17,326 nt of DNA from Clostridiaceae bacterium (lineage in GTDB: Bacteria > Bacillota_A > Clostridia > Clostridiales > Clostridiaceae). How positions within the stretch are numbered: position 1 is the first letter of the stretch; every line of letters starts with the position of its first letter. A program made the position numbers and the translations under genes. The notes below the pieces were generated by a model. That model did no database searches and was not told the DNA's origin. It was given only the letters and a program-made list of their open reading frames with translations. The stretch lies in NCBI GenBank assembly GCA_029256485.1, contig JAQSXU010000070.1:1-17326 (forward strand), given 5' to 3'. Positions 1,710-13,958 of the stretch are shown here, piece by piece.

Positions 1710-2150
1710 ATGTTTGAATCCTATGATGAAAATATTGGCAATTTTACAAGTTTAGTTAATAAAAAAATGGTTTATTTCTTAAATTCACAATTAGGAGTTT
1801 TTGATATAACTGCTGAACAATGGCAAGTATTGCTTACGCTTTCTAAACATAATAAGATAAATCAAAAAGTCCTGTCACAAACAGTAAATAAAGACCAGCC
1901 TACATTAACAAGAATGCTTGATATATTAGAAAGAAAAGCCCTTGTTGAAAGACATATGAGTAAAGAAGACAGACGTTCATTCTCTATTCACATAACAGAA
2001 AAAGGACTGGATTTAACGGAAAAACTTACACCATACATAGAAGATATATTCAGAAAAATTCTAAATGGTATTTCTGAAAAGGACTTACAAATTTATCTAG
2101 ATGTTCTTAATAAGATAGATGATAATATAACCAATTTAAATCACCTATAA
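1710..2150 (+). CDS. MarR-family transcriptional regulator
   Basis: A 146-residue dimeric winged-helix repressor, normal length for the family. The DNA-binding core runs from roughly residue 30 to 100: ITAEQWQVLLTL, the recognition region NKDQPTLTRMLDILERKALV and the wing ERHMSKEDRRSFSIHITEKG. The flanking helices at both ends would form the dimer interface. GGAGGG lies 6-7 bases before ATG 1710. The next gene in the same direction is a DHA2 drug exporter, a classic MarR target, and both promoters carry similar sequence. A terminator separates the two genes, so they are separate units probably linked by regulation. The ligand is unknown. Confidence 0.9.
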   Translation: MFESYDENIGNFTSLVNKKMVYFLNSQLGVFDITAEQWQVLLTLSKHNKINQKVLSQTVNKDQPTLTRMLDILERKALVERHMSKEDRRSFSIHITEKGLDLTEKLTPYIEDIFRKILNGISEKDLQIYLDVLNKIDDNITNLNHL

Positions 2151-2205
2151 ATTAACATAACTTACATAAATCAAATTCAATTCAATAATTTTTTCCAACA
2201 TATAT

Positions 2206-2244
2206 AAAAAATGTGATTAACACAAAATGTTAGTCACATTTTTT
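2206..2244 (+). terminator. Intrinsic terminator after marR
   Basis: AAAAAATGTGA-T-TAAC (2206-2221) pairs with GTTA-G-TCACATTTTTT (2229-2244), with one T/G wobble, around a 7-base loop. The 3' arm ends in a U-tract. It lies 56 bases after the marR stop codon. Confidence 0.85.
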
Positions 2245-2294
2245 ATATTTCTCCCAAAAACCACTTAATTGCATAATGCTTACAATAAAGCTAT

Positions 2295-2323
2295 TTGACA
2301 GAAATATATAATAAGCGTATTAT
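2295..2323 (+). promoter_or_regulatory. Promoter of the DHA2 exporter with candidate MarR operator
   Basis: A perfect TTGACA (2295-2300), a 17-base spacer and TATTAT (2318-2323). The inverted repeat TAAGC-N9-GCTTA (2312-2330) overlaps the -10 box. The words TAGCTT (2324-2329) and TTATACTAAT (2341-2350) also occur in the marR promoter (1661-1666 and 1668-1677), suggesting control by the same repressor. Promoter assignment is strong; the operator is inferred. Confidence 0.7.
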
Positions 2324-2406
2324 TAGCTTAACAATTATTTTTATACTAATTATTTGTATATCACGGAACATACAACAAAATAACATTTTCATGGAGGTTG
2401 ATAGAA

Positions 2407-3861
2407 ATGGAACAAGAATTAGAACAAGTTATCTTTGAAGACGATGAAGTAAAGGATGAATTAAAAGTAGTACTGATTACTACAGCACTTATACTAGCCG
2501 GTTTTTTATGTATGCTGAATGAAACAGTATTAAATATGGCTCTAAAAAATTTAATGGAGCAATTTAGTATATCTGCAAACACTGTTCAATGGTTAAGTAC
2601 AGGCTATATGCTTATCATGGGTATTTCAATCCCAATTTCAGCTTTTCTTACTAAAACTTTTACAACAAGGCAATTATTTTTAGCTTCTGTTATTATATTT
2701 ATGATTGGAACAATCATATCTGGCAGTGCTCCTGTTTTTTCTATTTTACTAATAGGGCGATTAATTCAAGCTGTAGGAACCGGGGTATTAATTCCAAATA
2801 TAGTAAATACATTGTTAATTATTAATCCCGTAGAAAAACGTGGTAAAGCATTAGGTATATTTAATCTTGTAATGTTTTGCGCACCAGCCATTGGCCCAAC
2901 TCTTTCTGGTTTAGTTATACAATCATTCAGTTGGAGATGGTTATTTTTCAGCATAGTCCCTTTTACTATCATTGCGCTAATAATTGGATACGTATATATA
3001 AAAAATGTAACTGAATTATCAAAACCACATCTTGATATCTTATCTATTTTATTATCTACCATTGGTTTTGGAGGATTTATATATGGTGTTAACAATATTG
3101 GTGGTTCTGCAGCTGCAATGACTATCCCAATAATTGCTGGATGTGCTGCACTATTTGCATTTGTATTTCGTCAAATACATTTGGAGGAGCCTATGTTAGA
3201 CATGCACCCTTTTAAATATCCTATGTTCACAATTGGGACTATACTTATGATTATTATGCATATGGTTAACTTTGCAACCATGCTTATTTTACCAATGTTT
3301 CTGGAAGGAGCTTTGGGATTAACTGCTTTTACTGCTGGACTTATTATGTTACCTGGTGGAGCTATTAATGGTATAATATCACCTATTTCAGGACATCTTT
3401 ATGATAAGTTTGGGGCTAAAGTATTAATTCTTCCTGGATTTGCAATTTCAGCCCTTGCATTTTATATTTTTTCATATACAATATCTCTTGAAATAACAAT
3501 TCCATTAATTATTACTTTACATTGTTTGTCATTATTTGCTGTAGGAATGATAAATACACCAAATCAAACAAATTGCTTGAATCAATTATCACTTGAAGAT
3601 GCACCTCATGGTACGGCCATAACTAATACACTGCAGCAAATAGCTGGAGCCTTTGGAACGGCTTTGTTTGTTGCTATTATGTCTTCAGGTCAAAAAAGCT
3701 ATTTAGCATCCATAGGTAATGCTAATGCTTCAAACCCACAGGCTTTATCTTTAGTTTATGGTGTGCATAAGGTTTTTGTAATTCAAGTATTCATTGTGGT
3801 TGCTGCTGTAATTTTATCGTTATTTTTAAAACAGAATACTTATCAACACGAAAGCCACTAA
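2407..3861 (+). CDS. DHA2-family multidrug efflux transporter (MFS, 14 TM)
   Basis: A 484-residue inner-membrane drug:proton antiporter of the major facilitator superfamily, DHA2/EmrB-LmrB type, of usual length. After an acidic cytoplasmic N-terminus of about 20 residues come many hydrophobic helices. Family landmarks are LNETVLNMAL near TM1, QWLSTGYML in TM2, FTTRQLFLAS in the TM2-TM3 loop (motif A region), GRLIQAVGTG in TM4, and motif C (APAIGPTLSG) in TM5. A TTG nine bases upstream (2398) directly abuts the GGAGG at 2393-2397, so ATG 2407, 9 bases from that site, is the real start. The MarR gene just upstream is the probable regulator. Likely exports toxic compounds or antibiotics; substrates cannot be read from the sequence. 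Confidence 0.88.
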   Translation: MEQELEQVIFEDDEVKDELKVVLITTALILAGFLCMLNETVLNMALKNLMEQFSISANTVQWLSTGYMLIMGISIPISAFLTKTFTTRQLFLASVIIFMIGTIISGSAPVFSILLIGRLIQAVGTGVLIPNIVNTLLIINPVEKRGKALGIFNLVMFCAPAIGPTLSGLVIQSFSWRWLFFSIVPFTIIALIIGYVYIKNVTELSKPHLDILSILLSTIGFGGFIYGVNNIGGSAAAMTIPIIAGCAALFAFVFRQIHLEEPMLDMHPFKYPMFTIGTILMIIMHMVNFATMLILPMFLEGALGLTAFTAGLIMLPGGAINGIISPISGHLYDKFGAKVLILPGFAISALAFYIFSYTISLEITIPLIITLHCLSLFAVGMINTPNQTNCLNQLSLEDAPHGTAITNTLQQIAGAFGTALFVAIMSSGQKSYLASIGNANASNPQALSLVYGVHKVFVIQVFIVVAAVILSLFLKQNTYQHESH

Positions 3862-3879
3862 AACACATTAATTCCATAA

Positions 3880-3916
3880 AAATAGCAGCTTCTAAAATAA
3901 TTAGAAGCTGCTATTT
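3880..3916. terminator. Bidirectional terminator between convergent units
   Basis: A perfect 15-bp stem (AAATAGCAGCTTCTA at 3880-3894 with its complement at 3902-3916) and a 7-base loop. It lies 18 bases after the exporter stop and 21 bases past the larB stop. Read leftward it ends in TTTTT, so it is the stronger terminator for the lar operon, but it can serve both strands. Confidence 0.88.
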
Positions 3917-3937
3917 AACCATTTAACCATAATTCAA

Positions 3938-4684
3938 TTATAACTTATTAATTATACTAGCATTATACGCTGCACCAAATCCATTATCTATATTTACCAC
4001 ACTTACTCCGCTGGCACAACTATTCAGCATTGATAGCAATGCAGAAATACCTCCAAAGTTAGCTCCATAGCCAACACTTGTTGGAACTGCTATGACAGGT
4101 TTGTCCACAAGGCCGCCTACAACGCTAGCCAAGGCTCCTTCCATGCCTGCAACTACTATAACAACTTTTGCCCCTCTAATAACATCCAATCTTGCAAAAA
4201 GTCTATGTATACCAGCAACCCCTACATCAATTACTTTTTCAACTCTATTTCCTAGTATTTTAGCAGTTTCATAGGCTTCTTCTACTACTGGCAAATCGGA
4301 AGTACCCGCTGCAACAATAGCTATATAACTATCTGTAACAACTTGTTCTTTTTTTCTAATAGTTATGGTTTTTCCAAGCTTATTGTATTCTGCGTCCATG
4401 CATATTTCCTTTACTGCATAATACATTTCTTCATTTGCTCTAGTTCCCAATATATTATTATTTTTTGTAACCATGTATTTAACAATATCTCTAACCTGAT
4501 GTACTGTCTTTCCAGCACAATATATTACTTCCGGATAACCAACTCTGATTTCTCTTTGATTATCTATTTTAGCAAAGCCTAAATCTTTAAAAGGTAAATC
4601 TTCTAATTTTTCAACAGCTTCTTCTAAGTTTACTTTATTGTTCTTAACACCTTCCAATAAAGTTTTAATTTCTTCTTTATTCAC
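3938..4684 (-). CDS. larB: LarB, pyridinium-3,5-biscarboxylate mononucleotide synthase
   Basis: LarB carboxylates the nicotinate ring of NaAD and releases AMP, giving pyridinium-3,5-biscarboxylic acid mononucleotide, the first step to the nickel-pincer nucleotide cofactor. The 248 residues match the family length (about 246 in Lactobacillus plantarum). The C-terminal half is the PurE-like domain: IVAAGTSDLPVVEEAY, VVIVVAGMEGALASVVGGL and the glycine-rich segment GYGANFGG. The start is GTG at 4682-4684, set by GGGAGGA 8-9 bases upstream; no ATG fits better. It follows larE by 21 bases and is the last gene before the terminator at 3880-3916. The order larC-larE-larB behind a nickel importer supports the assignment. 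Confidence 0.93.
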   Translation of the reverse strand: MNKEEIKTLLEGVKNNKVNLEEAVEKLEDLPFKDLGFAKIDNQREIRVGYPEVIYCAGKTVHQVRDIVKYMVTKNNNILGTRANEEMYYAVKEICMDAEYNKLGKTITIRKKEQVVTDSYIAIVAAGTSDLPVVEEAYETAKILGNRVEKVIDVGVAGIHRLFARLDVIRGAKVVIVVAGMEGALASVVGGLVDKPVIAVPTSVGYGANFGGISALLSMLNSCASGVSVVNIDNGFGAAYNASIINKL

Positions 4685-4705
4685 TAGCGTATCCTCCCAG
4701 GATTC

Positions 4706-5518
4706 CTATTTACTACTTTTTACCATAGTCTCATTGAAACTCCCTACTCTATATCCTTGTAAATCTAATGTTACATATTTAAAACCGCATTGTTTTATGT
4801 TTTCAGCAATGGTGTCTAACAGCTCCTCATGAAATAATTTATTTCTGTCCTGTCTAGCTACTTCAACTCTTGCCAAATCACCATGACATCTTACTCTAAC
4901 AGCTCTAAATCCTATGCTCATCATGTATTTCTCTGCATTTTCTATTTTCACAAAATCTTCTTCTTTTAATTCATTTCCATAAGGTATTCTTGTCAAAAGG
5001 CAGGCATATGGCGGCTTATCCCAGGTTTTAAGTCCTAATTCCTTAGAAAAAGCTCTTATTTCTGCTTTAGTTATTTTACATTGTAAAAGAGGGCTTTTTA
5101 CTTTCAGTTCCTTTAATGCTCTAAGTCCTGGTCTGTAATCATTTATATCATCATAGTTTGTTCCATCAATTACACATTCATATCCCTGCTTTTCAGCTAA
5201 ATCCAGTATCATGGTAAATACAGCTGTCTTACAAAGATAGCATCTGTCTTCAGGGTTATATCTAATTGAATCAATAATTGGTGCTTTTATAATTTCATGC
5301 TCCACTCCTAACTCTTTAACCAGCTCCTCAGCTTCTGCTATTTCCCACTTTGGTATATATGGCGATAGAATTGTCACTGCTTTAAAATTTTCTCCCAGAG
5401 CTTCTTTTCCTGCTTTAAGTAAAAAAGTACTATCCACTCCCCCTGAAAATGCTAAAACCACTTTTCCTAAACCTTTCAGATATTTTATTAATTCATTATA
5501 CTTTTCATTGTTTATCAT
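4706..5518 (-). CDS. larE: LarE, ATP-dependent pyridinium sulfurtransferase (three-cysteine type)
   Basis: LarE adenylates the two carboxylates of the LarB product and converts them to thiocarboxylates. The N-terminal PP-loop ATP-pyrophosphatase motif SGGVDS is at residues 25-30. ATG 5518 is used because AGGCGG lies about 8 bases upstream; a GTG six codons earlier (5536) has no clear ribosome binding site. From this start the protein has 270 residues, normal for the family. Cysteines are seen at 93 and 96 (RCYLCKTAVF) and at 173 (KPPYACLLTRIPYG). The last matches the position of the sulfur-donating Cys176 of L. plantarum LarE. The additional CxxC fits the homologues that hold a [4Fe-4S] cluster on three cysteines and may act catalytically rather than sacrificially; that reading is inference. 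It lies 26 bases after larC and 21 before larB. Confidence 0.92.
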   Translation of the reverse strand: MINNEKYNELIKYLKGLGKVVLAFSGGVDSTFLLKAGKEALGENFKAVTILSPYIPKWEIAEAEELVKELGVEHEIIKAPIIDSIRYNPEDRCYLCKTAVFTMILDLAEKQGYECVIDGTNYDDINDYRPGLRALKELKVKSPLLQCKITKAEIRAFSKELGLKTWDKPPYACLLTRIPYGNELKEEDFVKIENAEKYMMSIGFRAVRVRCHGDLARVEVARQDRNKLFHEELLDTIAENIKQCGFKYVTLDLQGYRVGSFNETMVKSSK

Positions 5519-5544
5519 ATATTTTCCGCCTCTCACCTATAAAA

Positions 5545-6738
5545 TTAAATTAGATCCTGTTTATAAACAGCTTTATATATGCTGTCAATTGGTATATTCT
5601 TTTCTTTTGCTATAGCTTTGCATTCCTCATATTCCGGCTTATATTTCACTAACTTTCCTTTATAATAGGATTTTTTCACAGTTATATCTCCATACTCTGT
5701 TGTCACTTTTGAAAAATCTCTTTTCAGCATTATTTTATCAACACTATATTTTCTAACACCCAGTGAAGTTGTTTCTTCAAAAATAATATCTAAAACAGCT
5801 TTTTCATTTTTTTCACCAACCAATACACTTAACTTTATTCCCGGTCTTCCCTTTTTCATATATATAGGTGTTTTAAATACATCCATAGCTCCTGCTTCAA
5901 AAAGTTTTTCTTCTACATATCCATAAAGTTCTGGATTCATATCATCTATATTGGTTTCAAGTATATACTGCTCTCCTTTTTTTTCTGAGCTTTCCTTTTC
6001 CCCTAAATATATTCTTAACACATTTGGAATTTCTAAATCTCTGTGGCCTATCCCATAGGCTGTGTTTTTAATTGAAAAATCAACTTTATCAGTAAATTCC
6101 TCCACGTTTGATGCTAATATGGCAGCCCCAGTAGGAGTGGTGGTTTCAAACTGTACTATTCCAGAATTTATAGGAATATTCTTTAATATCTCCACTGTTG
6201 CAGGGGCAGGTACAGGCATAATACCGTGAGCACATTTAACAAATCCCCCTCCGACCTGAACATGGGATGCCATAATTTTATCAACATTTAAATAATCTAA
6301 ACAAATAGCTGCTCCCACTATATCTATAATAGAATCAACTGCTCCCACCTCATGAAAGTGTACTTCATATAAAGTTTTTCCATGAACCTTTGCCTCTGCT
6401 TCTGCAACCTTCATAAACATATCTAAACTAAGTTTTTTAACTTTATCACTTAAATCACTTGAATTTATTATTTCCTCTATATCCTTCAGGTTTCTGTGAT
6501 GATGATGGTGATCATGTTCGCCATGGCTGTGTTCATGTTCATGTAATATAACGTCTACCCTAGTTCCTGTTATTCCCAGCTTCTCAGAGGTATCAATTAT
6601 TAGTTTATATTCAGAATTTAAGTTAATTTTTGAAAGCTGCTGCAGTAAATATTCTTTAGGAGCTCCTAAATCTATTAATGCTGCTAAATTCATATCACCG
6701 CTTATTCCACAGAAACAATCATAATATAAAATCTTCAT
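5545..6738 (-). CDS. larC: LarC, CTP-dependent nickel insertase (single fused ORF)
   Basis: LarC inserts Ni into the bisthiocarboxylate mononucleotide, forming the C-Ni and S-Ni bonds of the pincer cofactor at the expense of CTP. The 397-residue protein opens with the family signature YYDCFCGISGDM (5-16). It has a histidine-rich nickel loop at 66-81 (HEHEHSHGEHDHHHHH), then EVHFHEVGAVDSI, and the C-terminal DUF111 part (ETNIDDMNPELYGYV). In L. plantarum the gene is split as larC1/larC2 and joined by programmed frameshifting; here it is one continuous frame. ATG 6738 is preferred because AAGGAG lies 8 bases upstream; a GTG at 6747 overlaps that site. It follows cbiO by 40 bases and leads larE and larB. 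Confidence 0.95.
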   Translation of the reverse strand: MKILYYDCFCGISGDMNLAALIDLGAPKEYLLQQLSKINLNSEYKLIIDTSEKLGITGTRVDVILHEHEHSHGEHDHHHHHRNLKDIEEIINSSDLSDKVKKLSLDMFMKVAEAEAKVHGKTLYEVHFHEVGAVDSIIDIVGAAICLDYLNVDKIMASHVQVGGGFVKCAHGIMPVPAPATVEILKNIPINSGIVQFETTTPTGAAILASNVEEFTDKVDFSIKNTAYGIGHRDLEIPNVLRIYLGEKESSEKKGEQYILETNIDDMNPELYGYVEEKLFEAGAMDVFKTPIYMKKGRPGIKLSVLVGEKNEKAVLDIIFEETTSLGVRKYSVDKIMLKRDFSKVTTEYGDITVKKSYYKGKLVKYKPEYEECKAIAKEKNIPIDSIYKAVYKQDLI

Positions 6739-6778
6739 GTTTACCACTCCTTCACATCCTTTGAATTTTACTGCTAAT

Positions 6779-7504
6779 TTATATAATGTTATATTTTCTT
6801 AAAAAATCTTTATCATTTATAATATTTTCATACTTATCGTCTCTTATTATTTTATGATCTTCTGAAAATACAATGGCTCTATTAAAAACACCTTCTATAT
6901 ATCCAAAATCATGAGTTGCACAAATTATAGTTTTACCGCTATTATTTAGGGCTATTAATAGTTCTTTTAAAAAGTTTTTTCCTTTTGGATCTATTCCACT
7001 CATTGGCTCGTCCAAAGTTATTACTTCTGGATTCATTGCTAAAACGCTGGCAATTGCAACTCTCTTCTTTTCTCCTCCGCTTAAATTATATGGATATTCA
7101 TCTTTTAACTTATCTATATTAAGAAGATTAAGACAGTCACTTACTCTTTTATTTACTTCTTCCTCTGGCAGTTCCATTTGCATAAGTCCAAATGCCGCTT
7201 CTTCAAAGACAGTGGGGCAAAATAACTGGGCATCAGAATTTTGAAATATAAATCCCATTCTTTTATGAAACAGTTTTAAGTACCTGGTATCCTTTAAAGT
7301 ATGCTCATTTATTTCAGTATTATCAAATATATACTTGCCCTTGTTTGAAAAAATAATGGCATTTAATAATTTTAAAAAGGTTGACTTTCCGCTTCCATTG
7401 GGGCCAATAACCGCTATAGATTCCCCTTCTTCTATATTGACATTTACATTATCAAGAGCTGTTTTATTCTTGTATGTAAATGAAATATTCTCTAATTTTA
7501 TCAT
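6779..7504 (-). CDS. cbiO: CbiO-type ECF transporter ATPase, nickel/cobalt uptake
   Basis: Cytoplasmic ATPase that powers the ECF-type importer encoded with cbiM and cbiQ. All ABC motifs are intact: Walker A GPNGSGKS (about 34-41), Q-loop FIFQNSDAQLF, signature LSGGEKKR, Walker B VITLDEP and the switch histidine in ATHDF. The 241 residues are normal for a single ECF ATPase. AGGAG lies 8 bases before ATG 7504. It starts 12 bases after the cbiQ stop and larC follows 40 bases downstream, which points to nickel as the substrate. Cobalt cannot be excluded from the ATPase alone. Confidence 0.92.
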   Translation of the reverse strand: MIKLENISFTYKNKTALDNVNVNIEEGESIAVIGPNGSGKSTFLKLLNAIIFSNKGKYIFDNTEINEHTLKDTRYLKLFHKRMGFIFQNSDAQLFCPTVFEEAAFGLMQMELPEEEVNKRVSDCLNLLNIDKLKDEYPYNLSGGEKKRVAIASVLAMNPEVITLDEPMSGIDPKGKNFLKELLIALNNSGKTIICATHDFGYIEGVFNRAIVFSEDHKIIRDDKYENIINDKDFLRKYNII

Positions 7505-7516
7505 TAATAATTCTCC

Positions 7517-8308
7517 TTAATTTTTTAGTAAGGCGTATATAACTAAGAGTATATTTATTGTTAAATATACATAGTCAATTTTCTTTAATTTTAAATTTAC
7601 TTTTGCAGTATATTCTCCTGCAAAGCCTCTGCATTCCATAGCATGAAACATCTCTTCACTGATTTTATAAGACTTTATAAATAAATTTCCCATAATTCCT
7701 ATAAGAGAATTATATTTATTAGAAGTTATACCTATTGATCTGAGTTTTAATGCATATAACAAGTTAATAGAATGTTCTCCTAGAAGAACAATATATTTTA
7801 TGGTTATATCCATAATCCATATGAATATATCTGGTATATATAGTAGTTTTAATGATTTACTAATTTCACTCCATTTAGTGTTATGGGATAATAGATTCAT
7901 AAGTAATATTGTTATAATTAATTTTTGGAAAAGCAATAAGCTATTATAGATATTCCCATGAAGCATAGACGGTATTAAAGCTATTAAAGTTATTAAAGGA
8001 AACATAAAACTATTAAACAGTATCCTTTTCCTTGATTTCTTTTCCATAAGTAAAAGATTAATTAATACATACATATCCACTATTCCTAGGTAACTAAAAC
8101 TTCTTGAAATAGATACGCACAGTACCAATACTATAATGCTTAAAATCTTTAATGTTGGATTTATTGAGTAAACTAATCTATCCTGATTTTTATTTTGCCT
8201 GATTATTGAAACTATCTTAATTAAAGAAAAAATACTTTTTTCCATGTATAAGTTTTTTTCTTCCTTTGGAACGTAATTATCTTTTGCTGAAAGCCATTGT
8301 GGAACCAT
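7517..8308 (-). CDS. cbiQ: CbiQ-type transmembrane (T) subunit of nickel/cobalt ECF importer
   Basis: The integral-membrane coupling subunit between the CbiO ATPase and the CbiM substrate-binding subunit. The 263 residues contain several hydrophobic helices (for example KILSIIVLVLCV and LITLIALIPSML). Near the C-terminus are the two coupling-helix motifs of EcfT proteins in divergent form, ALKLRSIG and AMECRGFAG. The ATG at 8308 directly abuts the cbiM stop codon (TAAATG), with AGGAG inside the end of cbiM, so the two are translationally coupled. The protein is variable outside the coupling motifs, as usual for the family, so the call rests on motifs plus neighbours. Confidence 0.87.
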   Translation of the reverse strand: MVPQWLSAKDNYVPKEEKNLYMEKSIFSLIKIVSIIRQNKNQDRLVYSINPTLKILSIIVLVLCVSISRSFSYLGIVDMYVLINLLLMEKKSRKRILFNSFMFPLITLIALIPSMLHGNIYNSLLLFQKLIITILLMNLLSHNTKWSEISKSLKLLYIPDIFIWIMDITIKYIVLLGEHSINLLYALKLRSIGITSNKYNSLIGIMGNLFIKSYKISEEMFHAMECRGFAGEYTAKVNLKLKKIDYVYLTINILLVIYALLKN

Positions 8309-9289
8309 TTAATCTCCTTTTGTATTTCTCTTCAAATTTATTTTGCCTAAAACCTTAAAAGTAATTAAAATTATCATTACACCAACTAATGCTGATAAAA
8401 TATATCCAAAATATTTATTTAAAAATCCAAAACTATAGTTTGAAATTGGAGAATTAAATTGAAATCCTTCTTTCATTCCCTTAGGTACAAATCCTATAAG
8501 ATTCTTGATTTTTTCTGAACCCCATTCACCCCAGGCAGTTCCATTTGCTAAAAGTCCTAAAGGAGCAGCTAAAATAAGAATTCCTATTATAATGTATAAA
8601 AATTTTATTTTTCTTACTTTCCCTCTGTATAATAAATCTGGTGATGCCTTTTTTATATAACTGTACGCCCCTGCAGTTATTATTCCTTCCAAAATGCCAA
8701 CTACTAATAGATGAGGTATCAGCATAGCAGGAATAGATACAGCTAGACCATAGGGACTATATAATGGCAATCCAGAAAAATCTTTAAAAAGTAATGGCTG
8801 AATACCAAACTCAATTGCAGTAAATAAAGCTGCCATATTAACAGAAATATATCCTGCTAAGAATGCTCCAATATATTCTCCCCTTTGATTTTTAAATACC
8901 TTTTTTATGAGTTTAAATAAATAAAATGCTGTAAACGGCATTATAAAAGCCATATTAAAACAATTTACACCTAAAGCTAAAATTCCTCCATCTCCAAAAA
9001 ACAATGCTTGAATTACAATAGCTATAGTAACTGCAAGAACTGCAGAATAGGGCCCAAGCAAAATAGCAGCAAGGGCACCGCCAATAGCATGTGCTGTAGT
9101 TCCTCCTGGAACAGGTATATTAAACATCATAATTAAAAATGAAAAAGCTGCTGCTACTCCAAGAAGAGGCATTTTCTGTCTTGTTATTTCAGCTTTTACC
9201 TTTAAACTTGCCCTTCTCCATATAGGCAGCATAGCCAATCCAAAAGCAGCACAAGTTGAAGGACTTAAATAATTATCAGGTATATGCAT
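8309..9289 (-). CDS. cbiM: CbiM/NikMN-type nickel-binding subunit of ECF importer
   Basis: Membrane substrate-binding (S) subunit that captures the metal ion. It begins MHIPDNYLSP, the CbiM/NikM N-terminus whose Met1 amino group and His2 bind the metal. A second histidine lies at residue 67 (GGTTAHAIGG), the position of the third ligand in the NikM2 structure. After the CbiM helices, roughly residues 235-320 form a NikN/PDGLE-like domain (LGLLANGTAWGEW, then a soluble loop and one last helix). The protein is thus an NikM-NikN fusion and no separate nikN is needed. A G-rich ribosome binding site (GGGGGG) precedes ATG 9289. Only 47 bases separate it from the reductase upstream, with no terminator, so they are probably co-transcribed. 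The lar genes downstream argue for Ni over Co. Confidence 0.93.
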   Translation of the reverse strand: MHIPDNYLSPSTCAAFGLAMLPIWRRASLKVKAEITRQKMPLLGVAAAFSFLIMMFNIPVPGGTTAHAIGGALAAILLGPYSAVLAVTIAIVIQALFFGDGGILALGVNCFNMAFIMPFTAFYLFKLIKKVFKNQRGEYIGAFLAGYISVNMAALFTAIEFGIQPLLFKDFSGLPLYSPYGLAVSIPAMLIPHLLVVGILEGIITAGAYSYIKKASPDLLYRGKVRKIKFLYIIIGILILAAPLGLLANGTAWGEWGSEKIKNLIGFVPKGMKEGFQFNSPISNYSFGFLNKYFGYILSALVGVMIILITFKVLGKINLKRNTKGD

Positions 9290-9336
9290 AAAGTCATCCC
9301 CCCTTTGTGTTTCTAACCATTTATATTAATTTATGT

Positions 9337-10497
9337 TTATTCAAATAATGCCTTAACATTTTTTAATTCCTGACGGATTTTAATTCCTTGTGGACAATGG
9401 CTTTCACATTTACCGCACTCACGGCATTTATCTGCTCTTTCTGACTCATTAGTAAAAACATTATAGTGAGCCTTAAGTTCTCCTTCTGTCTGAGGTGTAG
9501 CAAGCATATAATACTGATTGTAAAGAGTAAAGTTCTTAGGGATATTTACTCCTGCTGGACAAGGCATACAATACTGACAGCCTGTACAGTTAACTTTTGT
9601 TCTTTCTCTATATGCTTTTATAACATTATCCATTATTTTTAATTCTTTTTCTGTTAGAGAGTTAGGCAGTGTTTCACTGGCAATTCTTAAATTTTCATTT
9701 ACATGGTCCATTACGTTCATACCACTGAGTACTACAGATACTTCTGGATGATTCCATACCCATCTTAGCGCCCAGTCAACAGGTGATCTTTTAATTTCTG
9801 CTTTTTCCATTGCATTAGTAACTGCTTCTGGAAGATCTCTAACCAGCTTTCCTCCTCTAAGCGGTTCCATTATAACAACTCCCAGACCTTTATCAGCAGC
9901 ATATTTTAATCCTTCTGTACCTGCCTGGAAATTTTCATCCAGATAATTATATTGGATTTGGCAGAATGACCAATCATAATAATCAACTATTTCTTTAAAT
10001 ACATTTAAATCATCATGAAATGAAAATCCTGCATATCTTATTCTTCCATCTTTAATTGCTGAATTTAAAAAATCATCTATTCCTAATTTCTTTAAATTTT
10101 CCCAAACACCTTTATTTAAAGCATGCACTAAATAAAAGTCTATTTTATTTGTCTGCAGACGTTGTAACTGTTCATTTAAATACTTATCCATATCTTCTCT
10201 GGTCTTAATGAGCCAGCTGGGAAGCTTTGTAGCTAAATTCACTTTTTTTCTATAGCCGTCTTTTAAAGCTCTGCCTACAAATGGTTCACTTTCTCCACCT
10301 CTTGCCATTCCTGTTCCATGATATGGATATGCAGTATCTATATAATTAACTCCTTCATCAATTGCATGATGAATCATTTCTATTGCCTTTTCCTCATCTA
10401 TGTATGTTACATCTCCATTAATTATAGGTAATCTCATACATCCATAGCCTAAAGCTGACACCTTTTCATTTGTCTTTCCTAATTTTCTGTATTGCAT
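9337..10497 (-). CDS. Aldo/keto reductase with C-terminal two-[4Fe-4S] ferredoxin domain
   Basis: A 386-residue cytoplasmic oxidoreductase. The N-terminal TIM barrel (about 1-295) has the full AKR catalytic tetrad: Asp54, Tyr59, Lys91 and His125. The tail carries two four-cysteine sets, C304-C307-C310-C313 and C358-C361-C364-C368, each ending CP, typical of AKRs with 4Fe-4S dicluster domains. It probably reduces aldehydes or ketones, or exchanges electrons with ferredoxin; the substrate is unknown. AAGGAGG precedes ATG 10497. The promoter is the MerR-type one at 10542-10572. The reductase is the first gene of the likely unit that continues into cbiM, only 47 bases downstream. Confidence 0.92.
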   Translation of the reverse strand: MQYRKLGKTNEKVSALGYGCMRLPIINGDVTYIDEEKAIEMIHHAIDEGVNYIDTAYPYHGTGMARGGESEPFVGRALKDGYRKKVNLATKLPSWLIKTREDMDKYLNEQLQRLQTNKIDFYLVHALNKGVWENLKKLGIDDFLNSAIKDGRIRYAGFSFHDDLNVFKEIVDYYDWSFCQIQYNYLDENFQAGTEGLKYAADKGLGVVIMEPLRGGKLVRDLPEAVTNAMEKAEIKRSPVDWALRWVWNHPEVSVVLSGMNVMDHVNENLRIASETLPNSLTEKELKIMDNVIKAYRERTKVNCTGCQYCMPCPAGVNIPKNFTLYNQYYMLATPQTEGELKAHYNVFTNESERADKCRECGKCESHCPQGIKIRQELKNVKALFE

Positions 10498-10541
10498 ATT
10501 AATTCCTCCTTAATAAATCATTTTTTAACCTCATAAAATTA

Positions 10542-10572
10542 ATTCTATCACTTGGAGTTAACTCCAAGTCAA
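10542..10572 (-). promoter_or_regulatory. MerR-type promoter and perfect palindromic operator of the reductase operon
   Basis: Read leftward: TTGACT (-35), a 19-base spacer, TAGAAT (-10). The spacer is filled by the 20-bp perfect palindrome ACTTGGAGTTAACTCCAAGT (10550-10569). A 19-bp spacer with a palindrome between the boxes is the hallmark of promoters activated by MerR proteins through DNA distortion. The neighbouring MerR gene is the obvious activator. Confidence 0.88.
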
Positions 10573-10597
10573 CATGTTTTTTCTGTATTTATATAAT

Positions 10598-10644
10598 AAA
10601 AAAACCTCTTTACACCTATAAATTCAAAATCAAGTGTAAAGAGG
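10598..10644 (-). terminator. Intrinsic terminator after merR
   Basis: Read leftward, CCTCTTTACAC (10634-10644) and GTGTAAAGAGG (10605-10615) form an 11-bp perfect stem followed by a run of seven T (10598-10604). It lies 31 bases past the merR stop and separates merR from the reductase promoter. Confidence 0.88.
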
Positions 10645-10674
10645 GCCTAATTTATTATTTAGGATGCAGAAATA

Positions 10675-11061
10675 CTAATTATCCGTTCTTTTTAGTTCAT
10701 TTTCTTTCTTAACTACTGATTGCTCATATCTTTCTATTTTATAATCCAGGCGTTCTATTGTCTTTTTTATATCTTCCATTTTTTCTATTAGATGTTTACG
10801 TTGTTCAGTTAATAGTTCTTTTCTTGCCTCAATAGTTTCATCACCCTGATGAAACAGCGTAACATACTCAATTAATACTTCAATGGGAAGACCTGCACTT
10901 CTCATACATTTAATAAATTCCACCCACCTGCAGTCTTCTTCCGTATAGTCTCTTATTCCGCTTTTACTTCGGTTTACTCCAGGAATAAGTCCAACACGTT
11001 CATAATAACGAAGGGTGTCCGCTGTAAGATCATATTTTTTACTTACTTCTGCAATGGTCAT
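10675..11061 (-). CDS. MerR-family regulator, AdhR/NmlR-like (carbonyl or electrophile sensing)
   Basis: A 128-residue MerR regulator: N-terminal winged helix (IAEVSKKYDLTADTLRYYERVGLIP), second helix-turn-helix to about residue 70, then a long dimerisation coiled coil (75-125). Cysteines occur at 44 and 52 (FIKCMRSAGLPI). Cys52 matches the single conserved cysteine that Bacillus subtilis AdhR needs to respond to aldehydes; a metal-binding C-terminal cysteine loop is absent. AGGAGG precedes ATG 11061. Its own promoter (11087-11117) has the 19-bp spacer and an imperfect copy of the same operator, so it should be autoregulated. It probably activates the reductase and flavodoxin promoters. Effector identity is inference. 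Confidence 0.9.
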   Translation of the reverse strand: MTIAEVSKKYDLTADTLRYYERVGLIPGVNRSKSGIRDYTEEDCRWVEFIKCMRSAGLPIEVLIEYVTLFHQGDETIEARKELLTEQRKHLIEKMEDIKKTIERLDYKIERYEQSVVKKENELKRTDN

Positions 11062-11086
11062 GAGCTTTCACCTCCTAATATCAGAT

Positions 11087-11117
11087 ATTATAACACTTGG
11101 AGTTAACATCAAGTCAA
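11087..11117 (-). promoter_or_regulatory. Autoregulated merR promoter with imperfect operator
   Basis: Read leftward: TTGACT, a 19-base spacer, TATAAT. The operator at 11095-11114 is ACTTGATGTTAACTCCAAGT, one half-site perfect and the other with two changes. The better -10 box and weaker symmetry fit a lower-affinity, partly constitutive promoter for the regulator itself. Confidence 0.85.
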
Positions 11118-11166
11118 TAATATTTTAACGGTATCACTTCTGGCAATATAGTTTCTGTGGTCTAAA

Positions 11167-12287
11167 CTATCTTTTCACATCCACTACAACATATTCCGAA
11201 TGATGACCAGTTCGAATTGGATAACCCCAGCCTCCTATTCCAGATGAAACAATAATCTGATACTTGTCAATCATTTTATAACCGTAATTCATCTGGCCGA
11301 ATCCTAATTTATCACTGATTAGTCCACGGGCCAAATCTGACCTCCGTGGGTATGTCCCGATAATTGCAAATCCATACCAGCCGCACTGTTTTCCTGAAGT
11401 TCACTTGGCTGATGATCCAGCAGTAAAAGAAAATTGTTAGTATGTACATTTTTTAATAACTCATCACTTGTTTTTCTTTTTATTCCGGAAGAAAAGCCTT
11501 TATCCTTTCTACCGATTATGGTAAACTCATCATTTATATTATATATTTCATCTTCAAGCACATGAATTTCATTACTTACTAATTGTTTTTTTAACTGATC
11601 TTCACTAAAATTCGGTTTGGAAGCATAGGTGCTTTTATCGTGGTTTCCATAGACATAAAAAGTTCCATATGTGCTTTTTATATTGCCTAGTATTTTTGCA
11701 GCATTCTCCATTTGCAGCTTGGTGGTTTTTTCATCCACTATGTCTCCGCAGAGAACTACTAAATCCGGCTTCTTACTTTCAATTTCATTACAGTATTTTT
11801 TTAGTTTTTCCTCATTCATGGTTGTACCAAAGTGAAGATCTGCAATCATTGCAATTCTATAACCCTGTTGTGGAATTGCCTTTTCTGTGTGTATGGTATA
11901 ATCAGTTTCAACCACATTTTCCATGTTGAAATAACCGTACCCGAGAATCAATACGGTTATTATAACAGGTACAATCCCGCAGCAGTAAATCTTATTCCAC
12001 AAACCAATTTTTATATCTCTGTGTTTACGTAAAGCAGCATATATAAGGTTAAGTGCCTCCATACATAAAGCCGCCGCAGCCAAATGTAGTACAATTAATG
12101 CACCAAATCCAAACAGATTCACAGACCATATAATTGCCAGTAGTGCAAGAAACGCTGCCAACATTTTAACTTTTTTAATCTTACATCCTATTCTCCAAAA
12201 ATCTGCAATCCTCAGGAAATAAAAATATAAGTAAACTCCTACAGGAATCAACAGAAGAAATGATATTATTATGAAAGTAATATACAT
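11167..12287 (-). pseudogene. YkuE-like membrane metallophosphoesterase, frameshifted near the C-terminus
   Basis: The N-terminus has about four hydrophobic helices, followed from roughly residue 145 by a calcineurin-like phosphoesterase: ADLHFGT, LVVLCGDIVDE, VYGNHDKS and SGHTHGGQIWP provide the metal-ligand motifs. The open frame stops at 11319, just after QIWPVD. One base further in register, the strand continues without a break as LISDKLGFGQMNYGYKM, then VSSGIGGWGYPIRTGHHSEY to a TAG at 11167, which is the expected end of the family. One missing base in 11322-11327 (a G of a GG pair in the message) explains it; the repaired protein would have about 373 residues. All metal-binding motifs lie before the break. 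It is a young pseudogene, a truncated but partly active enzyme, or a sequencing error. GGGGGGA precedes ATG 12287. Confidence 0.85.
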
Positions 12288-12379
12288 TGGATTTTCCCCC
12301 CCTATTTATATTTTATCACTTTTCTTTTTAAAAATATTAAACATACCTTCACCCTCTTTCAACCTTCATGAAATAATAA

Positions 12380-12442
12380 ACTCTCCTGGATAATTACGAA
12401 AAAACAGATTAAACTCTGTTTTAGGTAACACTCCAAGAGAGT
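12380..12442 (-). terminator. Nested-hairpin terminator of the flavodoxin-CMD operon
   Basis: The inner stem AAAACAGA/TCTGTTTT (arms 12415-12422 and 12401-12408, 6-base loop) is perfect and, read leftward, is followed by a T-run (12399-12404): a standard terminator 45 bases past the CMD stop. It is enclosed by a 4-bp stem (TTAC/GTAA) and an outer 10-bp stem at 12381-12390 and 12432-12441 with one G/U wobble. Confidence 0.7.
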
Positions 12443-12467
12443 AACAATCCCGGATACTTAAATATTT

Positions 12468-13220
12468 CTACTCTGGTATTACTTCATTTAAACATCTTAT
12501 GGCATTTAATGTCCTTGGGTATCCCACATATGGTAATAATTGTGTAGCTGTACTAAGCAATGTTTCTTTATTATTTCCAACATTTAAATTGCCCTGTATA
12601 TGTCCTTTTAATTGTAGTTCACATCCACCCAAGGATAAAATCATGGAGAAAGTTAAAAGCTCTCTCATTTTTACGTTCAGTCCTTTTCTTGTGTAATAGT
12701 CACCAAAGCAATTGTCAGATAAATATTTTTGAATATGAATCTGGCTTTTTGGTGATTTCTCATACATTTTATCAATAACTTCTCCAAAAATTGATTTTTG
12801 TAAGTCTAATCCTTTTTCATATCTTGTTTCCGGTGAAGTTGTGGACTGTCCTTCCAATGGCAGTTTTACTCCTCTGCTTTCTAATATTTCATTAGTAGCA
12901 TGTATAAATTCAAATGCTTTTGCAATTCCAACATATGGTACAGCCTGATATACAATTTCCTTCACCTCTATAGGAGTTACTCCAACATTAAGAGCACCGC
13001 CCAGCATTACTTTATATTCACTTAATGTTTGCATAGCAATCATAGATGATAAAATAACCATTAATCTGGTTTTTGTATCTAAATTTCCATAGCTTATTAC
13101 TTCATCAAAAGCAAAATTATCAAATACTTCTATAAGCTCCGGATCTGTTATCTTTAAAGTTGATTTATGATTGAGAAACAGTTCCTCATGGTTTTTATTT
13201 GCTGTTTCACTTATACGCAT
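12468..13220 (-). CDS. Carboxymuconolactone decarboxylase family protein, two CMD domains
   Basis: A 250-residue cytoplasmic protein with two tandem CMD/AhpD-like helical domains: one around residues 30-115 (TRLMVILSSMIAMQT, TPIEVKEIVYQAVPYVG) and one around 160-250 (MRELLTFSMILSLGG, LSTATQLLPYVGYPR). The AhpD redox CxxC is absent; the second domain keeps only CELQLKGH, one Cys and one His, and the first has neither. It is therefore more like the gamma-CMD-type proteins found beside reductases and flavodoxins than a peroxidase partner. GGGAG lies about 9 bases before ATG 13220. It follows the flavodoxin by 49 bases and shares its MerR-type promoter. Probable role in detoxifying reactive carbonyl or electrophilic compounds; the reaction is unknown. 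Confidence 0.85.
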   Translation of the reverse strand: MRISETANKNHEELFLNHKSTLKITDPELIEVFDNFAFDEVISYGNLDTKTRLMVILSSMIAMQTLSEYKVMLGGALNVGVTPIEVKEIVYQAVPYVGIAKAFEFIHATNEILESRGVKLPLEGQSTTSPETRYEKGLDLQKSIFGEVIDKMYEKSPKSQIHIQKYLSDNCFGDYYTRKGLNVKMRELLTFSMILSLGGCELQLKGHIQGNLNVGNNKETLLSTATQLLPYVGYPRTLNAIRCLNEVIPE

Positions 13221-13269
13221 AATTTAACACTCCCGTTCTTTTTATTTAAAACAAAGCTGATTTTGGATT

Positions 13270-13806
13270 TTAGGAAATCACTCCTGATTTCTTCAGCCAG
13301 TTTGATATGTCTTTTTCTGCTTCGCTTACACTGCCCCCTCTAATTGGAATGCCACTCAAAACATTAGCATTTGGGCAAAGTTTTTTAATATCACTTTCAC
13401 TATGTCCCATTCCGCTTCCTTCATGTGTACAGAATGGAATAATTGTTTTTCCTGAAAAATCATATGCTTCTAAAAATGTAAATATTGCCATAGGCATTGT
13501 ACCCCACCAGTTTGGGTAGCCTAAAAATATAACATCATAAGAATCCATATTCTCCACCTGGCTGGTAAGTTCCGGTCTTGCTTTCTGTCTTAATTCCTTC
13601 TGTGCCACTTCTGTTGTTTCTGTGTAATCCACCGGGTAAGTATTTACTGTATCTATATGGAACATATCGCATCCAGTGATTTCATGAATCATCTTTGCTG
13701 CAACTTCTGTGTTACCCACCGGCAGATTCATAATTTTTCCGCTAACGTAGTTATTCCCCTGACGTGAAAAATAAGCTGCCATGCATTTTTTATCTCTTAA
13801 ATTCAT
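13270..13806 (-). CDS. Flavodoxin-like protein (Flavodoxin_4 type)
   Basis: A 178-residue FMN-binding electron carrier or small flavin reductase. The phosphate loop is of the interrupted form: AAYFSRQGNN then about 12 residues and GNTEVAAKM. FMN-stacking loops follow at FLGYPNWWGTMP and FCTHEGSGMG. The C-terminal helix ends DISNWLKKSG. No signal peptide is present, so it is cytoplasmic. GGGAG precedes ATG 13806. It is the first gene of a two-gene unit with the CMD protein and is driven by the MerR-type promoter at 13879-13909. Flavodoxins of this subgroup are often encoded beside aldo/keto reductases and MerR regulators, as here. It could pass electrons to or from the [4Fe-4S] reductase; this is inference. 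Confidence 0.88.
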   Translation of the reverse strand: MNLRDKKCMAAYFSRQGNNYVSGKIMNLPVGNTEVAAKMIHEITGCDMFHIDTVNTYPVDYTETTEVAQKELRQKARPELTSQVENMDSYDVIFLGYPNWWGTMPMAIFTFLEAYDFSGKTIIPFCTHEGSGMGHSESDIKKLCPNANVLSGIPIRGGSVSEAEKDISNWLKKSGVIS

Positions 13807-13878
13807 TATTTATTCTCCCTTTCTTTTGGTATAAATCTAAATAACTCAAACAATAAAATTATTGTTTATCTGTAATAT

Positions 13879-13909
13879 ATGTTACCCCTTGGAGTTAACT
13901 CCAAGTCAA
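13879..13909 (-). promoter_or_regulatory. MerR-type promoter and operator of the flavodoxin-CMD operon
   Basis: Read leftward: TTGACT, a 19-base spacer, TAACAT. The spacer contains the perfect 18-bp palindrome CTTGGAGTTAACTCCAAG (13888-13905), identical to the core of the reductase operator. The poor -10 box suggests that expression depends on the activator. Confidence 0.85.
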
Positions 13910-13922
13910 GAAATTTTTCAAT

Positions 13923-13958
13923 TAAAAATGCCATCCGATTCTATAAATCTGATGGCAT
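13923..13958 (-). terminator. Intrinsic terminator after the UvrD-like helicase
   Basis: Read leftward, ATGCCATC-A-GATT and AATC-G-GATGGCAT (arms 13951-13958 and 13928-13935, extended inward by GATT/AATC) form a long hairpin followed by TTTTTAATT. It lies 17 bases past the helicase stop codon. Confidence 0.85.

What the first reader, a model, noticed from the sequence alone, without database searches (positions are those of the whole stretch)
10542..13909. Three-promoter MerR regulon with identical 19-bp-spacer operators
Three leftward promoters (10542-10572, 11087-11117, 13879-13909) have TTGACT, exactly 19 bases, then a -10 box, with CTTGGAGTTAACTCCAAG or a near copy filling the spacer. They drive an [4Fe-4S] aldo/keto reductase, the regulator itself and a flavodoxin-CMD pair. 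The MerR has Cys at 52, the position used by AdhR for carbonyl sensing. Together they define a compact electrophile/aldehyde response unit whose redox partners (flavodoxin, ferredoxin-type reductase) may work together.
Basis: partly seen in the sequence, partly recalled or inferred. Interest (0 to 1): 0.7.

Follow-up and report, generated by a model that had tools for sequence, protein, structure and literature searches.

The report
Stress switch controlling nickel-cofactor genes
Three matching control sites in a Clostridium-like genome mark genes run by a protein that probably senses reactive aldehydes, and one of them appears to switch on a seven-gene set that takes up nickel and builds the rare nickel cofactor of lactate racemase, a link that also points to a likely job for a large enzyme family of unknown function.

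Summary
In detail: three minus-strand promoters carry TTGACT, a 19-base spacer and a -10 box, with the palindrome exact at two sites and two mismatches at the third (chance 0.01). The regulator is NmlR/AdhR-like; Cys52 is invariant in 79 of 79, but it scores below the NmlR cut-off. The link recurs: in 59 sampled genomes, 5 of 13 with both have an operator within 8 kb upstream of larC (expected 0.06). In relatives operators also precede DUF362 genes. A modelled class I DUF362 protein has the lactate racemase (LarA) fold; class I proteins keep its H-x9-K-x15-H cofactor motif and occur in genomes with LarC or LarA (28 of 29 and 47 of 48; base rates 37 of 59 and 81 of 101). I predict ferredoxin-wired NPN enzymes. 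No binding, transcript or enzyme was measured; the window's own genome was not available.

The parts
10542..10572 (-). MerR-type promoter/operator 1: TTGACT-N19-TAGAAT with exact palindrome; 44 nt from its -10 box to the AKR start
11087..11117 (-). promoter/operator 2 (autoregulatory), palindrome with 2 mismatches; 25 nt upstream of merR
13879..13909 (-). promoter/operator 3, exact palindrome, weak -10 (TAACAT); upstream of flavodoxin-CMD
10675..11061 (-). MerR-family regulator, NmlR/AdhR-like, Cys44 and Cys52
   Evidence: Pfam MerR_1/MerR-DNA-bind; NmlR model 147.7 bits, cut-off 175; closest solved chain 3gp4; Cys52 79/79, Cys44 77/79
10595..10652 (-). terminator-like hairpin with U-run after merR, upstream of operator 1, so AKR is unlikely to depend on merR read-through
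   Evidence: fold -17.3 kcal/mol, z -4.5
9337..10497 (-). aldo/keto reductase with C-terminal dicluster 4Fe-4S motif; first gene after operator 1
   Evidence: Pfam Aldo_ket_red 138.5 bits, Fer4_9 39.3
8309..9289 (-). CbiM-type ECF transporter S component with PDGLE domain (nickel uptake inferred from the lar context)
   Evidence: PF01891 213 bits, PF13190 45 bits; NCBIfam names it cobalt transporter CbiM
7517..8308 (-). CbiQ transporter subunit
   Evidence: PF02361 74.5 bits
6779..7504 (-). CbiO-type ATPase
   Evidence: ECF/CbiO models, best 222 bits but below cut-off
5545..6747 (-). LarC, NPN biosynthesis (nickel insertion)
   Evidence: NCBIfam LarC1 225.7 (cut-off 90), LarC2 158.6 (cut-off 50)
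4706..5536 (-). LarE, sacrificial sulfur transferase of NPN biosynthesis
   Evidence: TIGR00268 322.9 (cut-off 150)
3938..4684 (-). LarB, NPN biosynthesis
   Evidence: NF033503 296.5 (cut-off 175)
3880..3916 (-). terminator-like hairpin after larB, end of the seven-gene run
   Evidence: fold of 3880-3940 -23.8 kcal/mol, z -6.5; T-run seen
13270..13806 (-). flavodoxin (Flavodoxin_4)
12468..13220 (-). two-domain carboxymuconolactone-decarboxylase-family protein
   Evidence: PF02627, two stretches
12380..12440 (-). terminator-like hairpin after the CMD gene
   Evidence: fold -26.3 kcal/mol, z -7.1

Best explanation
An NmlR/AdhR-like MerR protein sits on a palindrome that fills an over-long (19-base) promoter spacer. 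When its Cys52 reacts with an electrophile or aldehyde it is expected to twist the DNA so that RNA polymerase can open three promoters: its own, flavodoxin-CMD, and a seven-gene unit AKR-CbiMQO-LarC-LarE-LarB. The last unit brings in nickel and makes the nickel-pincer nucleotide, so the cell raises a hydride-transfer cofactor together with carbonyl reductases. The cofactor goes to LarA-type racemases and, most likely, to class I DUF362 proteins (LarA fold with a ferredoxin insert) that lie in the same regulon in some relatives. Shown: sites, gene order, hairpins, recurrence, predicted fold and motif. Inferred: binding, inducer, co-transcription, nickel as the metal, cofactor use by DUF362.
For: Sites far above chance (reversed control 0). 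Of 17 sampled genomes with an operator 14 carry a relative of this MerR at E<=1e-20; of 42 without, 6 do. Gaps inside the run are 0 to 47 nt; folding shows no hairpin at AKR/CbiM or CbiO/LarC (the other gaps were not folded) and strong ones after merR and after larB; no Rfam family reaches its gathering score in the window. An operator directly precedes the same module elsewhere: G045 and G076 op-CbiMQO-LarCEB; G002 op-MerR-CbiMQO-LarCEB; G050 op-AKR-LarC-LarB; G010 and G073 MerR-op(5 mismatches)-AKR-LarC-LarE-LarB; G001 op-AKR(88%)-...-LarC-LarE-LarB-op(5 mismatches)-MerR. In 59 genomes an operator lies within 8 kb upstream, same strand, of larC in 5 of 13 that have both; expected 0.056. LarC, LarE or LarB lies within the fetched flanks (up to 8 kb) of merR in 14 of 78 loci (L075 with a 38% LarC hit not counted). 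CMD and an AdhC-type dehydrogenase are AdhR targets in B. subtilis (PMC4776306 passages).
Against: No binding or transcript data. An extra promoter at 9290-9336 cannot be excluded, and the consensus scan lists one terminator-like match inside cbiM on the minus strand (9083-9064; 8 matches in the scanned region, 4.0 expected). 8 of 13 genomes with both features have no <=3-mismatch operator within 8 kb of larC (2 of these 8 have a 5-mismatch site), and 4 of the 17 operator genomes have no LarC. In L023 and L058 merR is followed by CbiMQO in genomes with no LarC, LarA or DUF362 hit, so nickel or cobalt uptake there serves something else. The protein is below the NmlR cut-off. The P value assumes uniform, independent sites, whereas sites cluster.
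Confidence: 0.72

Rival explanations
1. One reading: a plain aldehyde-detoxification regulon of three short transcripts; the cbi-lar genes are neighbours with their own promoter.
For: AKR, flavodoxin and CMD relatives are first genes after 34, 4 and 2 of 130 operators. In many loci the operators precede AKR or Fe-ADH with no lar gene in the flanks: lar genes are in 14 of 78.
Against: In G045, G076 and G002 an operator is the promoter of the cbi-lar run itself, without an AKR between. No hairpin is predicted between AKR and cbiM and no Rfam family matches.
Confidence: 0.2
2. The NPN made by this regulon serves lactate racemase (LarA) only: methylglyoxal is turned into D-lactate, possibly by a nickel glyoxalase I (recalled), and LarA converts it to L-lactate. 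DUF362 is a bystander.
For: LarA occurs in 14 of 16 genomes picked for lar or cbi genes beside merR. In G045 LarA and an aquaporin-like gene (by eye) lie between merR and the op-cbi-lar unit. In L025's genome (G008) LarC and LarA are present and DUF362 gives only a weak hit on a LarA frame.
Against: 15 of 36 LarC-bearing genomes in the family sample show no LarA at E<1e-9, and all 15 have DUF362. LarA within 10 kb of a <=3-mismatch operator was seen in 1 of 7 genomes with both (G045; my comparison; a weaker Lar_N hit in G050 lies 8.4 kb from a site but upstream of it). C. polyendosporum (G002) has the operators, the cbi-lar operon and DUF362 but no LarA hit.
Confidence: 0.35
3. The palindrome is read by a different or additional MerR paralogue, so the three sites are not a single regulon of the window's MerR.
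For: Several genomes hold more than one relative of this MerR (C. polyendosporum three close ones, behind sites with 6, 1 and 1 mismatches, plus one at 35%). G050 and G076 have operators but only 35-37% MerR relatives. G059, G066 and G074 have operators and no hit at E<=1e-20.
Against: In the window the site is in the regulator's own promoter, and 35 of 130 sites precede a merR gene. tblastn with this MerR finds no second one in the window.
Confidence: 0.15

Closest known systems
B. subtilis AdhR (YraB) regulon
   Same: MerR with Cys52; targets include a CMD protein and a carbonyl-handling oxidoreductase; responds to formaldehyde and methylglyoxal (passages of the review PMC4776306; the original paper is not held)
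   Different: here an Fe-S aldo/keto reductase instead of AdhA, flavodoxin beside CMD, and a nickel/NPN operon that is not described for AdhR in the passages I saw
NmlR of Neisseria/Haemophilus
   Same: same MerR clade and conserved cysteine (PMC4776306 passages); NmlR is the best NCBIfam hit
   Different: below the curated cut-off; no adhC-estD found among the annotated neighbours; multi-operator cluster
lar operon of Lactobacillus plantarum (LarABCDE, nickel transporter, LarR)
   Same: LarB, LarC, LarE and a CbiMQO-type transporter (the L. plantarum layout is recalled)
   Different: no larA in the run; led by an AKR; behind a MerR-type operator rather than LarR control (recalled)
LarA superfamily (DUF2088)
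   Same: class I DUF362 shares the fold (one model), the H174/K184/H200 spacing and Pfam clan CL0471 (stated in PMC11770544)
   Different: ferredoxin domain inserted after the motif; shorter than LarA; the modelled protein is not matched by the Lar_N model; DUF362 is used only as an outgroup in the passages of that paper

Membership tests
NmlR/AdhR-type MerR regulators | MerR DNA-binding and dimerisation domains | tested here: met
NmlR/AdhR-type MerR regulators | conserved sensing cysteine (Cys52 in AdhR, Cys54 in NmlR) | tested here: met
   79 of 79; position from PMC4776306
NmlR/AdhR-type MerR regulators | NCBIfam NF041849 NmlR equivalog cut-off (175 bits) | tested here: not met
   147.7 bits; hence called NmlR-like only
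NmlR/AdhR-type MerR regulators | operator inside a 19-20 bp promoter spacer | tested here: met
   spacing rule from PMC5045206 passages
NmlR/AdhR-type MerR regulators | induction by carbonyl compounds through the cysteine | not testable with these tools
   needs transcripts and a C52A variant
NPN (lar) biosynthesis and nickel-uptake operon | LarB, LarC and LarE above curated cut-offs | tested here: met
NPN (lar) biosynthesis and nickel-uptake operon | transporter specific for nickel | tested here: inconclusive
   CbiM plus PDGLE domain; NCBIfam calls it a cobalt transporter
LarA superfamily (for class I DUF362 proteins of relatives) | LarA fold | tested here: met
LarA superfamily (for class I DUF362 proteins of relatives) | H174, K184, H200 (catalysis, NPN link, Ni ligand) | tested here: met
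   H159, K169, H185 invariant in 57 and 35 aligned sequences, with one extra residue before the last His in some (L028, L054); profile alignment puts them on H174/K184/H200, though with low probability (18 and 14%)
LarA superfamily (for class I DUF362 proteins of relatives) | D72, R75, H108, K298 equivalents | tested here: inconclusive
   not resolved by the profile alignments
LarA superfamily (for class I DUF362 proteins of relatives) | match to Pfam Lar_N (PF09861) | tested here: not met
   L142 protein matches DUF362, not Lar_N, at E<=0.001; some class I loci give weak Lar_N hits. So a clan relative, not a Lar_N member
LarA superfamily (for class I DUF362 proteins of relatives) | bound NPN and hydride-transfer activity | not testable with these tools
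   needs protein

The most novel reading that the evidence does not exclude
Class I DUF362 proteins are a second, ferredoxin-wired class of nickel-pincer-nucleotide enzymes. They have the LarA fold and its His-Lys-His cofactor site, with a 2[4Fe-4S] domain that could carry electrons to or from the NPN hydride, making them net oxidoreductases (for example of 2-hydroxy acids or 2-oxoaldehydes) instead of racemases. In anaerobic Bacillota an electrophile-sensing MerR raises them together with nickel uptake, NPN synthesis and aldo/keto reductases.
Probability: 0.5. Interest if true: 0.88.

Novelty: new variant of a known kind. Interest (0 to 1): 0.7.

Why it matters
It ties nickel-pincer cofactor synthesis, known mainly from lactate racemase and its relatives, to a probable stress-sensing MerR with a defined operator, so the control of NPN supply in anaerobes becomes directly testable. 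It also gives DUF362, a widespread family for which my one search (9 papers, listing; passages of one) showed no function, a concrete cofactor, a site to mutate and a control set (genomes with LarC and DUF362 but no LarA hit). If right, NPN would serve net redox chemistry as well as racemisation.

Tried and rejected
Own-genome regulon scan: impossible, no genome is held for the window. Rfam families: none at gathering score. Plasmid origin: no megablast match of 3900-13950 in the plasmid collection. The consensus scan for terminators listed none of the four hairpins used here and one inside cbiM; folding showed the four, which have long loops or AT-rich stems.

'All DUF362 use NPN' was rejected: class II proteins (H-x9-K-x14-H, TGA[IV]KN) are common in genomes without LarC. 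Of 37 fetched DUF362 proteins the strict class I motif is in 11 (9 of 22 from LarC+ genomes, 2 of 15 from LarC-; L162 is class I-like but fails the pattern; L170 gave no ORF and the stubs L171 and L189 were not used). The plain DUF362-LarC association is strong in the family sample (33/3/3/20) but weaker over the phylum sample (57/7/21/16). In both samples class I was called by hit span >=780 nt (10 of the 11 fetched proteins with such spans have the strict motif), plus the motif in G002 and G045; the phylum list was cut off by the tool near E 8e-40, so those counts are lower bounds. Exceptions: G072 and G131 have class I with neither LarC nor LarA. Thresholds set by me: DUF362 E<1e-10, LarA E<1e-9. 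The nine family-sample genomes with only weaker Lar_N hits have them on DUF362 frames; in the phylum sample G096, G105 and G108 have Lar_N hits near 1e-7 that I counted as absent without seeing the frame. C. glutamicum is not rung by the LarA model although a paper lists a LarA homologue there, so LarA absences may be overcalled. Bacteroides ihuae among the controls has DUF362 but no LarC, and M. jannaschii and C. glutamicum LarC but no DUF362.

LarA as the main regulon member: rejected as general; one case (G045). Methylglyoxal-induced flavodoxin Cbei_3015 in C. beijerinckii (log2 5.71, PMC11497831 passages) is a lead only; its operator and orthology were not tested, and the same paper reports a MerR gene (Cbei_2721) going down.

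Literature: no paper holds GGAGTTAACTCC; the 20 that hold GAGTTAACTC look unrelated by title (listing only); none holds both 'nickel-pincer' and 'MerR'. A looser search (633 papers, 20 listed) shows one listed paper holding both 'lactate racemase' and 'MerR' (PMC4155825), not opened. 'DUF362' gives 9 papers, of which I saw passages of one (PMC11770544). PMC9909328 was seen in a listing only; PMC12611868 as abstract start, with a term search that found nothing; PMC3146418 and PMC12077213 in passages, not used. Most subscription papers are not covered.
Full report
OBSERVATION. The three sites are real. On the minus strand the window has TTGACT, 19 bases and a -10 box at 10572-10542, 11117-11087 and 13909-13879. 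The 18-base palindrome is exact at two and has two mismatches at the merR site; shuffled windows gave 0.01 matches on average. The third -10 box (TAACAT) is weak.

THE REGULATOR. The 128-residue MerR (10675-11061) has the MerR domains, its best NCBIfam match is NmlR but below cut-off (147.7 against 175 bits), and its closest solved relative is chain 3gp4, a Listeria protein according to PMC5045206 (passages). In 79 sequences (78 loci and the window) Cys52 is invariant and Cys44 is present in 77. The review PMC4776306 (passages) states that this cysteine is absolutely conserved in the NmlR clade and that a strain with AdhR C52A makes no adhA transcript in response to formaldehyde.

THE OPERATOR IS A CLADE-WIDE MARK. 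One scan of genome contigs with this MerR kept 78 distinct loci (358 candidate stretches encoded a relative, the best 80 were kept). With the promoter frame required and up to 5 mismatches, the palindrome occurs 130 times in these loci and the window, 0 times in five shuffles. The first gene downstream is merR in 35, a relative of the window's AKR in 34, flavodoxin in 4, CMD in 2 and something else or nothing called in 55. Among 83 distinct non-MerR first genes Pfam finds aldo/keto reductase in 33, iron alcohol dehydrogenase in 9, DUF362 in 9, LarC in 4, Flavodoxin_4 in 4 and CMD in 2. In 14 whole genomes chosen because they hold the regulator all 14 have sites, reversed control 0. In 59 genomes drawn from the family of C. 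magnum 17 have sites (53 rows), reversed control 0; 14 of these 17, and 6 of the other 42, hold a relative of the MerR at E<=1e-20.

Downstream of operator 1 the minus strand runs AKR, CbiM with a PDGLE domain, CbiQ, CbiO, LarC, LarE, LarB with gaps of 0 to 47 nt. LarB, LarE and LarC exceed their curated equivalog cut-offs. Terminator-like hairpins follow merR, CMD, the helicase gene upstream of operator 3, and larB (for the T-runs); none is predicted at AKR/CbiM or CbiO/LarC (the other gaps were not folded), and no Rfam family reaches its gathering score in the window. The consensus scan lists one terminator-like match inside cbiM (8 found in the region, 4.0 expected). So operator 1 most likely drives a seven-gene unit for nickel uptake and NPN synthesis. 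This is inference from anatomy; no transcript was seen.

RECURRENCE. In 14 of 78 MerR loci LarC, LarE or LarB lies in the flanks. Several layouts place the operator on this module: op-CbiMQO-LarCEB (G045, G076), op-MerR-CbiMQO-LarCEB (G002, C. polyendosporum), op-AKR-LarC-LarB (G050), MerR-op-AKR-LarC-LarE-LarB with a 5-mismatch site and a 34-35% MerR relative (G010, G073) (identities), op-LarC-LarE-LarB (L042), op-LarE-MerR (L026), MerR-LarC-LarE-LarB (L025). In the family sample 5 of the 13 genomes with both an operator (<=3 mismatches) and larC have them within 8 kb on one strand; uniform placement predicts 0.056 (the tail probability of 1e-9 is too small because sites cluster). Two loci (L023, L058) have merR followed by CbiMQO in genomes with no LarC, LarA or DUF362 hit, which I cannot explain.

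WHO USES THE COFACTOR. LarA genes are mostly elsewhere: in the 16 genomes searched 14 have LarA, and among 7 sampled genomes with both an operator and LarA (E<1e-9) only G045 has them within 10 kb. DUF362 genes are often inside the regulon: directly behind an operator in G076 (L142) and, with a 5-mismatch site, G050 (L144); directly behind a 34-37% MerR relative in G067 and G078; and in a merR...DUF362-larC-larB run in L012 and L018. Among the 13 sampled genomes with an operator and a class I DUF362, 4 (G002, G050, G057, G076) have them within 10 kb by my comparison of coordinates; 9 do not. PMC11770544 (passages) places DUF362 and LarA in one Pfam clan and uses DUF362 as an outgroup.

PHYLETIC TEST. 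In the family sample, of 36 genomes with LarC 21 have LarA; the other 15 all have DUF362, and the 3 without DUF362 all have LarA; of 23 without LarC, 3 have DUF362. In a phylum sample of 101 the pattern is weaker: LarC without LarA 17, of which 14 have DUF362; without LarC and LarA 20, of which 7 have DUF362. Restricting to class I sharpens it: 28 of 29 class I genomes in the family sample and 47 of 48 in the phylum sample have LarC or LarA, against base rates of 37 of 59 and 81 of 101; the exceptions are G072 and G131. For comparison, LarC against LarA itself gives p 2e-5 and 0.01, LarC against class I 1.5e-8 and 1.2e-5; relatedness and incomplete assemblies are not corrected for, and 17 phylum genomes have LarA but no LarC hit. 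G001 is in both samples.

HOW IT PROBABLY WORKS. By the MerR rule (PMC5045206 passages) the long spacer keeps the promoter closed until the activated dimer untwists it. Cys52 alkylation or oxidation is the likely trigger, by analogy; PMC4776306 notes that no S-alkylation had been reported for NmlR or AdhR. Output: AKR and CMD for carbonyl and perhaps peroxide handling, a flavodoxin, and extra nickel and NPN. The NPN feeds hydride-transfer enzymes, LarA where present and, I propose, class I DUF362.

VERDICT. The finding is real and its regulator is of a known kind. The new elements are the nickel/NPN operon in the regulon and the prediction for DUF362. Interest 0.7; new variant of a known kind; the boldest reading at 0.5.

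Noticed in passing
window 11150-12287, minus strand: The metallophosphoesterase gene between CMD and merR is interrupted near its 3' end: the expected C-terminal stretch lies in another frame just downstream of the stop. A true frameshift or a sequencing error; left as it is.
   Followed up: partly
L139 and L140 (C. polyendosporum, contig positions about 5900-30560): An archipelago of operators in about 25 kb (7 rows with up to 3 mismatches) with three close MerR paralogues behind sites of 6, 1 and 1 mismatches, plus flavodoxins, AKR, an Fe-ADH-like and a MATE-like gene, DUF362 and the whole cbi-lar operon (some names by eye).
   Followed up: partly
L023 8001-about 11100; L058 8001-about 11600: merR followed by CbiMQO in genomes with no LarC, LarA or DUF362 hit: nickel or cobalt uptake under this MerR must serve something else.
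   Followed up: partly
L041 3752-6100 and 8653-11000, L042 5578-7891, L051 4441-6760: Operators precede a pair of genes: a class II-like DUF362 protein that looks exported (by eye) and a membrane polyferredoxin of about 450 residues, which suggests an exported or membrane-linked DUF362 redox pair.
   Followed up: no
L001 4284-4619 (C. magnum): Between AKR and larC only a 111-residue CbiM fragment is left and no CbiQ or CbiO was matched, where the window has the complete transporter.
   Followed up: no
L145 8530-10566 (G045): A LarA gene and an aquaporin-like gene (by eye) sit between merR/AKR and the operator-driven cbi-lar operon.
   Followed up: no
window 1710-3861, plus strand: A MarR regulator next to a transporter that looks like a multidrug MFS (by eye), a separate likely efflux unit beside larB.
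   Followed up: no
DUF362 (PF04015) hits: DUF362 splits into two classes by motif: H-x3-G[FY]GG-x2-K-x15-H, usually with a ferredoxin insert, and H-x9-K-x14-H. The two differ in their link to NPN genes.
   Followed up: yes
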